Source: Leifsonia xyli (lineage in GTDB: Bacteria; Actinomycetota; Actinomycetes; Actinomycetales; Microbacteriaceae). Taken from it: a stretch of DNA of 64,000 nt. The position numbers and the translations under genes were made by a program. Position 1 is the first letter of the stretch; every line of letters starts with the position of its first letter. The stretch lies in NCBI GenBank assembly GCA_001647635.1, contig CP014761.1:2294001-2358000 (forward strand), read 5' to 3'. Positions 10,512 to 13,800 of this stretch are shown here, piece after piece. The notes beneath the pieces were generated by a model, which was not told the origin of the DNA, made no database searches, and worked only from the letters and a program-made list of their open reading frames with translations.

Positions 10512-10933
10512 GTGGACATCCGAGTCGCGGCCTACGGCGTCATCACCGACGGTGACCGCATCCTCCTCGCGCACTGGAACGAGAGCGGCCGGTCCGGGTG
10601 GACGCTGCCCGGCGGCGGGATCGACCCGGGGAGGATCCGGCGGACGCGGTCGTACGCGAGATCGCCGAAGAGACCGGGTACGCGGCGGAGGCGGGAGCGC
10701 TGCTCGGGATCGACTCGAAGGTCATCCCGCACGAGCATCGCTTCATCCCGGAGGCCGGACCGCTCCATGCGCTGCGGATCATCTACCGCGCGAGCGTCGT
10801 CGGGGGCACTCTCACGAACGAGTTGGATGGCACGACCGACGAGGCCGCGTGGTTCCCGCTCGGACGGATCCCGAAGCGCCGCGTCGAGCTGGTCGACATC
10901 GCCCTCGGGCTCGCCGGACTCGATCAGGCCTGA
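10512..10933 (+). pseudogene. NUDIX hydrolase, interrupted by a one-base frameshift
   Basis: Nucleoside-diphosphate-linked hydrolase. The first frame (from GTG 10512) gives MDIRVAAYGVITDGDRILL and runs to GGGIDPG; the next frame gives EDPADAVVREIAEETGY and the rest. Together they form a perfect NUDIX box (G-x5-E-x7-REUxEExGU). The break is at the GGGG run 10628-10631, where one more G would restore a 140-residue protein. All conserved residues survive on both sides, so this is either a very recent mutation or a sequencing error. The 3' end overlaps the convergent PspC gene by 10 bases. Confidence 0.85.
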
Positions 10934-12473: not shown

Positions 12474-13328
12474 ATGACTCAGCCCGTCGGCGCGCGCTCC
12501 AATTACTGCTACCGCCATCCCGATCGCGAGAGCTACGTGCTCTGCCAGCGGTGCGGCCGCACCATCTGCGGTGAGTGCCAGACCCCTGGCGCGGTCGGTG
12601 TGGTGTGCCCGGAATGCATGGCGCAGCAGCGCGCCTCGCACCCGCGCACCAAGCCGGCGTGGATGACGCGTCTGACCGGGCAGGGTGCGCCTGTCGTGAC
12701 CTACGCCATCATCGGCGTGTGCGTCCTGGTCTTCATCGTGCAGACCGTCGGCGATCTGCTCGGCTTCCAGGTGACGAACGCCCTGCGCTACGCGGGCGCG
12801 TACTCGTATCCGGCGTCCGTGTCCGGAGCGTTCGAGCCATGGCGGATGTTCACAAGCATCTTCGCGCACGCGAACATCCTGCACCTGCTGCTCAACATGT
12901 ACACGCTGTTCATCTTCGGCTCGGCGCTCGAGCCGATGCTGGGACGTGCCCGCTATCTGGCCTTGTTCCTGATCAGTGGTTTCGCGGGTTCGCTCGGCGT
13001 GCTCCTCATCGCCTCTCCCGTCGTGCCGGTTGTCGGCGCGTCCGGAGCGATCTTCGGTCTCTTCGGCGCCTACTTCATCATCCAGCGACGGCTGGGCGGC
13101 AACGCGACCCAGATGCTGGTCCTGCTCGCCATCAACCTCGGGATCGGGTTCCTCCCCGGGTTCAACATCGCGTGGCAGGCGCACGTCGGCGGACTCATCG
13201 GCGGCGTGCTGGTGGGCCTGATCTTCGTGGAGACGCGCCAGGCGAACCGGCGGCGGTGGCAGCTGCCCTTGCTCGTCCTGCTCTGCGTCGTCTTCGTGGC
13301 GCTGAGCCTCATCCACGTCTTCGTGTAA
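12474..13328 (+). CDS. rhomboid family intramembrane serine protease with N-terminal zinc-finger
   Basis: 284 residues. The N-terminal 50 residues carry Cys/His pairs (Cys12, His15, Cys24, Cys27, Cys32, Cys35, Cys45, Cys48) resembling a B-box-like zinc finger. The rhomboid domain has about six membrane helices; the catalytic dyad is Ser190 in GASGAIFG and His237 in QAHVGG. The loop motif LEPMLGRARYL and the HLLLNMY helix are present. Rhomboids cleave substrates within the membrane; no substrate can be inferred. The stop codon lies inside the 13-bp inverted repeat of the DnaA-box cluster. Confidence 0.93.
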   Translation: MTQPVGARSNYCYRHPDRESYVLCQRCGRTICGECQTPGAVGVVCPECMAQQRASHPRTKPAWMTRLTGQGAPVVTYAIIGVCVLVFIVQTVGDLLGFQVTNALRYAGAYSYPASVSGAFEPWRMFTSIFAHANILHLLLNMYTLFIFGSALEPMLGRARYLALFLISGFAGSLGVLLIASPVVPVVGASGAIFGLFGAYFIIQRRLGGNATQMLVLLAINLGIGFLPGFNIAWQAHVGGLIGGVLVGLIFVETRQANRRRWQLPLLVLLCVVFVALSLIHVFV

Positions 13329-13385
13329 TTACCCACATCGCGTGGATAAGTTATCCACAGGCTTATTAACACTGTGGGTAATTAC
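13325..13385. repeat. 13-bp perfect inverted repeat flanking DnaA boxes
   Basis: GTAATTACCCACA at 13325-13337 and its exact reverse complement TGTGGGTAATTAC at 13373-13385, 35 bases apart. Each arm holds a TTACCCACA sequence, one mismatch from the E. coli DnaA box. The left arm includes the rhomboid stop codon. Confidence 0.9.
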
Positions 13386-13481
13386 ACTGCTGTAACTCTC
13401 CACAGGCTTATTAACACTGGGGAAATCGTCGGCCAACGCGCGGCAACTGTTCACAGGGTCCCTGTGGACAACTGTGGAAAA
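13329..13481. other. cluster of DnaA-box-like 9-mers
   Basis: Within about 150 bases: TTATCCACA at 13351-13359 (perfect, + strand), TGTGGACAA at 13463-13471 (perfect actinobacterial box TTGTCCACA, - strand), TGTGGAAAA at 13473-13481 (fits TTWTNCACA, - strand), CGTGGATAA at 13341-13349 and TTACCCACA at 13329-13337 and 13373-13381 (one mismatch each), and CTGTTCACA at 13447-13455 (weaker). The stretch is visibly AT-richer than its surroundings, with TTATTAACA twice. DnaA boxes normally gather between dnaA and dnaN; this group lies about 12.6 kb from the dnaN end. It may be an accessory DnaA-binding locus. Confidence 0.75.
13354..13419. repeat. 21-bp direct repeat, 45-bp period
   Basis: A 21-base sequence beginning TCCACAGG and ending TTATTAACACTG occurs at 13354-13374 and 13399-13419, identical in both copies. 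The first copy is fused to the perfect DnaA box TTATCCACA; in the second the box reads CTCTCCACA. Such iteration is typical of origin or regulatory protein-binding arrays. Confidence 0.9.
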
Positions 13482-13486
13482 CACGA

Positions 13487-13539: not shown

Positions 13540-13800
13540 CTACCGCCAGCGCGTGGTCATGAGGAAGCCGATGAAGGCGATCCCGAAGCCGACGAGGATG
13601 TTCCAGGCGCCGAGCGCCGGGATGGGGTACTGGTTCTGGCTGACGTAGAAGACGATGATCCAGATCAGGCCGAGCAGCATGAAGCCGAACATCAGCGGCT
13701 TGAACCACACCGGGTTCGGCGCCTCTTCTCCGGACGCCGCTGCAGTGCGCTCAGCGCGGGCGGGTCGCTCGGGTTTCGTCTTCGACTTGCTGCGTGCCAT
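13540..13800 (-). CDS. crgA: cell division protein CrgA
   Basis: 86-residue protein with a basic N-terminal tail (about 30 residues), the motif NPVWFKPLMFGFMLLG and two membrane helices (about residues 35-56 and 67-83). CrgA interacts with the septum machinery (FtsZ, FtsQ and PBPs in mycobacteria; a septation inhibitor in Streptomyces). It is encoded beside the pknB/pbpA operon as in other actinobacteria. Start chosen at the ATG giving MARSKSKTKPER. Confidence 0.95.
   Translation of the reverse strand: MARSKSKTKPERPARAERTAAASGEEAPNPVWFKPLMFGFMLLGLIWIIVFYVSQNQYPIPALGAWNILVGFGIAFIGFLMTTRWR

What the first reader, a model, noticed from the sequence alone, without database searches (positions are those of the whole stretch)
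13325..13485. DnaA-box cluster with nested repeats outside the dnaA-dnaN gap
Seen: two perfect DnaA boxes, one fitting TTWTNCACA and several one-mismatch boxes in about 150 bases between the rhomboid gene and crgA, inside a 13-bp inverted repeat and a 21-bp direct repeat with 45-bp period, in a locally AT-rich stretch. Known: bacterial oriC usually lies next to dnaA, and DnaA-titrating or reactivating loci (datA, DARS) exist elsewhere. Inference: this is an accessory DnaA-binding locus, or a second lobe of the origin, in this lineage.
Basis: partly seen in the sequence, partly recalled or inferred. Interest (0 to 1): 0.7.

Follow-up and report, generated by a model that had tools for sequence, protein, structure and literature searches.

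The report
Ancient DnaA-McdR site near replication origin
A short non-coding DNA element about 14 kb from the replication origin carries a cluster of binding sites for the replication starter DnaA that overlaps a probable site for a cell-division regulator; it is kept in most of the actinobacteria examined and matches a DnaA-binding site already known in the tuberculosis bacterium, so it may be where replication and division are coordinated.

Summary
The cluster is real, with one perfect DnaA box, not two: six boxes with at most one mismatch lie in 153 bp; 5000 local shuffles gave at most two. It lies between convergent rhomboid and crgA, about 14 kb from a separate dnaA-dnaN oriC. Among 90 class loci read 3' of crgA, 76 have a DnaA box, 66 an 18-bp palindrome, 60 both together; 73 of 76 scored named loci, mostly Microbacteriaceae, have both; controls gave no palindrome. 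The palindrome fits, here with one mismatch, the published motif of the regulator McdR/ResR (PMC9040748), and usually overlaps a DnaA box by 1-2 bp. The same place in M. tuberculosis (Rv0010c-Rv0011c; Rv0011c = crgA, recalled) is a published DnaA-binding site with recurrent clinical mutations in a palindrome (PMC7738170). Most likely this is an ori-proximal accessory DnaA locus fused to a McdR operator, linking DnaA to division. DnaA binding is shown by others in mycobacteria; McdR binding here and the coupling are inferred. 'Accessory DnaA-binding locus' is supported; 'second lobe of the origin' is not.

The parts
13380..13397 (.). 18-bp palindrome, putative McdR/ResR operator (AATTACACTGCTGTAACT; one mismatch to AATnACAnnnnTGTnATT)
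   Evidence: only match with at most 2 mismatches in the 64-kb window; palindrome conserved in the genus alignment; motif from PMC9040748
13373..13381 (-). DnaA box A (TTACCCACA, 1 mismatch), overlaps the palindrome by 2 bp
   Evidence: same or neighbouring offset, allowing 2 mismatches, in 107 of 139 elements
13363..13371 (+). weak DnaA-like box B (TTATTAACA, 2 mismatches); the same 9-mer is also in the oriC of this genome
13351..13359 (+). DnaA box C, perfect TTATCCACA
   Evidence: kept in all 27 rows of the genus alignment (this genome included, G024 left out)
13341..13349 (-). DnaA box (TTATCCACG, 1 mismatch), inverted against box C
13329..13337 (+). DnaA box (TTACCCACA, 1 mismatch) next to the rhomboid stop codon; poorly conserved
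13396..13419 (+). second half-copy CTCTCCACAGGCTTATTAACACTG, lacking a palindrome; conserved in most of the genus alignment, not in the family
13463..13481 (-). two further boxes (TTGTCCACA 13463-13471, TTTTCCACA 13473-13481); similar only in part of the genus
13325..13385 (.). 13-bp inverted repeat, arms 13325-13337 and 13373-13385
   Evidence: read; the left arm varies among relatives
12474..13328 (+). rhomboid-family protease gene, convergent neighbour
   Evidence: Pfam Rhomboid 3.3e-34
13540..13800 (-). crgA, cell division protein, convergent neighbour (start codon chosen by eye)
   Evidence: Pfam CrgA 1.9e-31; match 13543-13800

Best explanation
This is an origin-proximal, non-coding nucleoprotein site: an array of DnaA boxes fused to an operator for the MerR-type division regulator McdR/ResR. 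DnaA occupies boxes A, B and C; McdR, presumably as a dimer, occupies the palindrome, which overlaps box A by 1-2 bp, so the two proteins must compete or bind cooperatively side by side. Lying about 14 kb from oriC, the site is copied soon after initiation, so its DnaA/McdR occupancy can change at that moment and tie DnaA activity to McdR and its division genes (whiB2 and others). Shown: sequence, conservation, preferred spacing, a McdR homologue in the genome, a McdR-type site in front of its whiB gene. Shown by others, in mycobacteria: DnaA binding at the corresponding site; McdR binding to this motif at other promoters. Inferred: DnaA and McdR binding at this site, their competition or cooperation, and the coupling.
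For: 3' of crgA, 90 loci from 38 families (90 of 141 matches) gave a motif with at most 2 mismatches in 66, a DnaA box in 76, both within 45 bp in 60; the same strings reversed 0, 4, 0; upstream stretches (n=88) 0, 1, 0; 76 scored named loci 73, 73, 73, with reversed 0, 5, 0 and upstream 0, 8, 0. Exact McdR motif in 72 of 148 class genomes, reversed pattern in 0. Preferred layout in 141 distinct elements: reversed box at +38 to +41 from the motif start in 100; a forward box at +16/+17 in 48 with at most 1 mismatch, in 107 of 139 allowing 2. McdR homologue: 143 of 148 genomes at E <= 0.001, 139 of them strong; here it lies beside FtsR and an FHA gene, and an exact McdR motif lies 18-51 bp before a whiB gene, depending on the start codon. 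Mycobacterial counterpart: DnaA IDAP-seq, EMSA, M. smegmatis ChIP-seq; recurrent mutations in a palindrome 65 bp before Rv0010c; three rebuilt variants gave longer cells like dnaA variants (PMC7738170). In L125 the palindrome lies 66 bp before the gene following crgA.
Against: No binding data for this organism. 24 of 90 class loci lack the motif at 2 mismatches or fewer, including all 4 f25 (streptomycete-like) and all 3 f23 loci, though these keep boxes; 14 of 90 have no box with at most 1 mismatch; 10 of 38 families showed no motif, 5 of 38 no box. The window's own palindrome deviates by one base from the published consensus. The M. tuberculosis authors read their palindrome as two DnaA-box-like sequences and report an unchanged replication initiation rate in the mutants, which argues against a simple role in initiation. 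The McdR paper's text names three of five DIP-seq targets, not this site (passages). HigA2 also binds the Rv0010c leader in vitro at 8 uM (PMC11205783). Loci are related, so the counts are not independent.
Confidence: 0.6

Rival explanations
1. A datA- or DARS-like DnaA regulator: the boxes titrate DnaA or switch its nucleotide state, and the palindrome merely binds an architectural helper, as IHF does at datA and IHF/Fis at DARS2 (recalled).
For: Non-coding, separate from oriC, preferred box array beside one cofactor site; the mycobacterial authors mention titration or nucleotide exchange as possibilities.
Against: No box-level match to datA or DARS was tested; the palindrome fits a promoter-binding division regulator and is also found before whiB-like, mraZ, sepX and dnaE genes; initiation rate is reported unchanged in the mycobacterial mutants.
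Confidence: 0.25
2. The palindrome is a pair of low-affinity DnaA boxes, so the element is DnaA-only.
For: The authors of PMC7738170 describe the mycobacterial palindrome this way and DnaA binds the region.
Against: The halves (AATTACA, AATGACA, AATCACA) differ from TTATCCACA, the palindrome occurs before other genes, and it matches a McdR motif proven by mutation at whiB2.
Confidence: 0.12
3. An ordinary transcription-control site for a neighbouring gene or an unannotated RNA.
For: In mycobacterium-like genomes it lies before the next gene; Rv0010c is up-regulated in a higA2 mutant (PMC11205783); in one genome of another class the palindrome lies just before crgA (L205).
Against: Here it lies between two 3' ends; in G266 crgA lies elsewhere and the site stays at the rhomboid end; PMC7738170 reports no change of Rv0010c or Rv0011c expression in dnaA mutants; no Rfam family reached its threshold.
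Confidence: 0.1
4. A second lobe of a bipartite origin.
For: Shares the TTATTAACA plus inverted-box module with the dnaA-dnaN oriC.
Against: 13.2-16.7 kb away in 27 genus genomes; a conserved box array lies in the dnaA-dnaN gap.
Confidence: 0.03

Closest known systems
DnaA interaction site Rv0010c-Rv0011c of Mycobacterium tuberculosis (PMC7738170)
   Same: Same place (3' of crgA, origin-proximal), DnaA-box cluster, palindrome 65 bp before Rv0010c (66 bp before the gene in that position in the mycobacterium-like L125)
   Different: There crgA and Rv0010c run in tandem (as in L125), here the neighbours converge; its authors read the palindrome as DnaA boxes and saw no obvious counterpart in other species
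McdR/ResR operators (whiB2, MSMEG_0833, MSMEG_5468; PMC9040748)
   Same: AATnACAnnnnTGTnATT palindrome; McdR homologue and an exact site before a whiB gene in this genome
   Different: Those sites lie upstream of genes repressed on McdR overexpression; this one overlaps a DnaA box and lies at no known promoter
datA and DARS1/DARS2 of Escherichia coli (recalled; papers seen only as search listings)
   Same: Non-coding DnaA-box loci outside oriC with cofactor sites
   Different: No homology tested; the cofactor would be a MerR regulator rather than IHF/Fis; lies much closer to oriC
DnaA box clusters of Streptomyces coelicolor, including D78 (recalled; not found in the held library)
   Same: Actinobacterial box clusters outside oriC
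   Different: Whether D78 is the crgA gap could not be checked; the 4 streptomycete-like loci read here keep boxes but lack the McdR motif

Membership tests
crgA-gap DnaA interaction site (mycobacterial Rv0010c-Rv0011c type) | position directly 3' of crgA near oriC | tested here: met
crgA-gap DnaA interaction site (mycobacterial Rv0010c-Rv0011c type) | cluster of DnaA boxes with a palindrome | tested here: met
crgA-gap DnaA interaction site (mycobacterial Rv0010c-Rv0011c type) | DnaA binding in vitro and in vivo | not testable with these tools
   shown by others in M. tuberculosis (in vitro) and M. smegmatis (ChIP-seq)
McdR/ResR operator | AATnACAnnnnTGTnATT palindrome | tested here: inconclusive
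   one mismatch in this window; exact in 40 of 76 named and 17 of 90 class loci
McdR/ResR operator | McdR regulator encoded in the genome | tested here: met
   L231:2078-2629:- beside FtsR and an FHA gene; orthology to Rv1830 rests on resemblance and gene neighbours (the Rv1827-Rv1830 order is recalled), not on an alignment with Rv1830 itself
McdR/ResR operator | binding by McdR | not testable with these tools
   none for this site
datA / DARS | stimulates DnaA-ATP hydrolysis or ADP/ATP exchange | not testable with these tools
   none
datA / DARS | specific box orientation and IHF/Fis sites | not tested
   no comparison made
oriC (second lobe) | next to dnaA, with the unwinding region | tested here: not met
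   13.2-16.7 kb from the dnaA-dnaN gap in 27 genus genomes, which has its own cluster; an unwinding region was not looked for

The most novel reading that the evidence does not exclude
An ancient composite control element of Actinomycetes in which DnaA and the division regulator McdR/ResR occupy overlapping sites close to the origin, a built-in replication-division checkpoint; the tuberculosis findings on dnaA, the Rv0010c-Rv0011c site and mcdR/resR-whiB2 would then be parts of one circuit meeting at this element.
Probability: 0.4. Interest if true: 0.87.

Novelty: new variant of a known kind. Interest (0 to 1): 0.74.

Why it matters
How actinobacteria time replication and couple it to division is poorly understood. 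This shows that a DnaA site described as having no obvious counterpart in other species (PMC7738170) recurs in most sampled families of the class, and proposes the second protein at it. It would turn a puzzling clinical mutation hotspot into a testable conserved circuit and allow the work to be done in harmless relatives.

Tried and rejected
BLAST of the gap beyond the family found little (4 of 296 class genomes, this one included); the wider conservation only appeared when the 3' side of crgA was read directly. A first alignment mixed strands and was discarded. A pattern with TCCNCA next to the palindrome found 7 of 396 phylum genomes (reversed control 1) and was replaced by the plain palindrome. 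Considered for the palindrome and dropped, from recalled motifs: parS, LexA, NrdR, CRP-like, BldD. FtsR was dropped because its published motif differs (PMC6683498, passages). A known RNA element was dropped (two hits far below their thresholds). The solved structures found by sequence are only distant MerR relatives. The perfect box beside a weak palindrome at G000 1918659-1918686 was judged probably chance and not followed. Literature: ten searches; in their listings and the passages read I saw no paper joining McdR to this site or reporting its conservation across the class, but supplementary tables could not be opened, most subscription papers are not held, and the 2022 Science paper on resR is recalled only. 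PMC13270200 and PMC10336103 were searched for passages and did not mention Rv0010c.

Rows dropped: the 90 class loci are 90 of 141 genomes with CrgA, the 30 returned by the tool and 60 chosen by me to cover families; 2 of 78 named loci were too short to score; G024 was left out of the genus alignment and of the distances; 2 of 141 elements were too short for the box A count, which looked only at offsets 14-21 and, where several motifs were present, used the one with the best neighbouring box.

Full report
Observation. The window is positions 2294001-2358000 of a single-contig 3.60-Mb genome. Its CrgA is closest among the named records returned to Leifsonia (88% and 86%), so the organism is probably a Leifsonia-like member of Microbacteriaceae. 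Of 7 matches to TTATCCACA with at most one mismatch in the window, 6 lie in 13329-13481. Shuffling the stretch itself gives 0.046 on average and never more than 2 in 5000. The repeats are as described. The gap separates two convergent genes, rhomboid (+, ends 13328) and crgA (-, ends 13540), so no ordinary promoter is expected there.

Not oriC. Four perfect boxes lie in the dnaA-dnaN gap of the same genome, 0.6-0.9 kb before the window starts (L001:8145-8390), and this gap was found in 28 of 28 genus genomes, this one included. The finding lies 13.2-16.7 kb (median 14.3) from it in the 27 genus genomes where both are on one contig. The two share a TTATTAACA plus inverted-box module.

Conserved unit. 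BLAST finds the gap in 28 of 28 genus genomes, 19 of them by a shorter stretch of 70-168 bases, in 70 of 199 family genomes (37 of 85 genera) and in 4 of 296 class genomes. Alignment shows that the family-wide core is a perfect box, a weak box TTATTAACA, an inverted box and an 18-bp palindrome, AATTACACnnGTGTAAyT. In this genome TTACACnnGTGTAA with at most one mismatch occurs at only two places.

Class-wide reach. CrgA was found in 141 of 148 class genomes. I read 90 of these 141 loci, from 38 families (30 returned, 60 chosen to cover families). Boxes and palindrome sit 3' of crgA in most of them. Counted within 350 bp of the crgA stop: a palindrome with at most 2 mismatches to AATnACAnnnnTGTnATT in 66 of 90 (28 of 38 families), a box with at most one mismatch in 76 of 90 (33 of 38), two or more boxes in 56, both elements within 45 bp in 60. 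The same strings reversed give 0, 4, 1 and 0; equal stretches upstream of crgA give 0, 1, 0 and 0 of 88. In 78 named loci, mostly Microbacteriaceae, of which 76 could be scored: 73, 73, 57 and 73; controls reversed 0, 5, 0, 0 and upstream 0, 8, 0, 0. The misses matter: all 4 f25 loci (streptomycete-like, my guess from genome size) and all 3 f23 loci keep boxes but show no motif; f2, f41, four f32 and two f33 loci lack both. The loci are related to each other, so these are not independent counts.

Architecture. In 141 distinct elements carrying the motif, a reversed box starts at +38 to +41 from the motif start in 100, and a middle box at +25 to +28 (reversed) in 45 or +30 (forward) in 16. A forward box with at most one mismatch starts at +16 or +17 in 48; allowing two mismatches and looking only at offsets 14-21, in 107 of 139. 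The motif is 18 long, so this box overlaps it by 1-2 bp. In this window the overlap is 2 bp (13380-13381). The centres of palindrome and first box are then about 11.5 bp apart, near one helical turn (my arithmetic).

Not tied to crgA. In G266 crgA lies at 1354386 of a 1,384,812-base contig, about 30 kb on the other side of dnaA if the contig is circular, with no motif or box beside it; the site (10713-10730) remains at the end of the rhomboid gene, 9-10 kb from dnaA (163) and dnaN (1963). So it does not simply travel with crgA.

What binds the palindrome. A plain palindrome search in 392 phylum genomes hit 52, the reversed control 3. Of the 30 loci returned, 2 are crgA gaps, 1 lies directly before crgA, 3 lie before whiB-like genes, 3 before mraZ, 7 before the divisome gene sepX/glpR in f10 genomes, 1 before a weaker sepX-like gene (below the model cut-off), 1 before dnaE, 2 before a MerR gene in f50; in 10 I recognised no target (family models for one or two members of each kind, the others by eye). 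Two further dnaE cases came (by eye). McdR (Rv1830, ResR), a MerR regulator, binds AATnACAnnnnTGTnATT and represses whiB2; altering the halves or the spacer length abolishes this (PMC9040748, passages read). The exact motif occurs in 72 of 148 class genomes, the reversed pattern in none. A McdR homologue matches in 143 of 148 at E <= 0.001, of which four (G229, G245, G276, G339) are weak; the five misses are at most 86% complete. In this genome it stands beside FtsR (NCBIfam 245.8 against cut-off 150) and an FHA gene, and an exact motif at 3190949 lies 18-51 bp before a whiB gene, depending on the start codon. I therefore read the palindrome as a McdR operator; binding is not shown.

Link to mycobacteria. 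In M. tuberculosis, DnaA binds Rv0010c-Rv0011c in IDAP-seq and EMSA; the homologous region is a ChIP-seq peak in M. smegmatis. Recurrent clinical mutations fall, all but one, in a small palindrome 65 bp before Rv0010c; three rebuilt variants had longer cells like dnaA variants, with an unchanged initiation rate; the authors found no obvious counterpart in other species (PMC7738170: abstract, passages and section 9 read). That Rv0011c is crgA is recalled. In the mycobacterium-like L125 the palindrome AATCACACGCGTGTGATT lies 66 bp before the gene that follows crgA. A HigA2 study describes ATCAC(N)4-7GTGAT sites, one of them in the Rv0010c leader at the DnaA site (PMC11205783, passages), which fits the same palindrome. 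That the two palindromes are the same is thus strongly suggested but was not checked on the M. tuberculosis sequence itself.

Mechanism. Shown: boxes, palindrome, preferred spacing, conservation. Shown by others in mycobacteria: DnaA binding at the site, McdR binding to the motif elsewhere. Inferred: that DnaA and McdR meet here, and that early duplication of the site after initiation changes their occupancy, linking DnaA activity to division genes. Longer cells with unchanged initiation rate in the mycobacterial mutants fit a coordination role better than a plain timing role. A datA- or DARS-like action without a specific McdR role remains possible.

Novelty. Accessory DnaA sites are known and the mycobacterial one is published. 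New here, as far as ten searches of the held library show (listed in Tried and rejected), are its conservation across the class, the preferred architecture and the proposed McdR operator.

Noticed in passing
G000:3190949-3190966 (L234:1550-1567): Exact McdR motif shortly before a whiB gene in this genome, suggesting that the McdR-whiB2 circuit of mycobacteria exists in Microbacteriaceae.
   Followed up: partly
L105/L225, L106, L108; L217, L219, L220; L202, L204, L218; L209, L210, L212-L216, L222; L227, L228: The McdR-type palindrome lies before dnaE, mraZ, whiB-like, sepX/glpR and a MerR gene in other classes and in mycobacterium-like genomes, the MerR case as two overlapping copies (part of the genes named by eye).
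   Followed up: partly
L102/L205, G674: In one genome of another class the palindrome lies directly before the crgA start, with a second similar palindrome and box-like sequences upstream.
   Followed up: no
L235:10713-10730: In G266 (family f32) crgA lies on the other side of dnaA, but the element stays at the rhomboid end; G354 looks alike.
   Followed up: partly
window 13396-13423: Second half-copy of the element without a palindrome, shared by most of the genus alignment, making the 45-bp direct repeat.
   Followed up: partly
L001:8182-8201: TTATTAACA plus inverted perfect box in oriC repeats the module of the crgA-gap element.
   Followed up: no
L064:2160-2187 (G000:1918659-1918686): A perfect DnaA box 5 bp from a weak TTACACnnGTGTAA-like palindrome inside the 3' end of a gene that looks patatin-like by eye; possibly chance.
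   Followed up: no
G000:2918410-2918427 (L233:1511-1528): A second exact McdR motif in this genome, about 240 bp before a FAS1/MaoC-like dehydratase gene.
   Followed up: no
L291, L325: CrgA loci resembling Microbacteriaceae in records titled Microthrixaceae and Acidobacteria; the titles may be wrong or the bins mixed.
   Followed up: no
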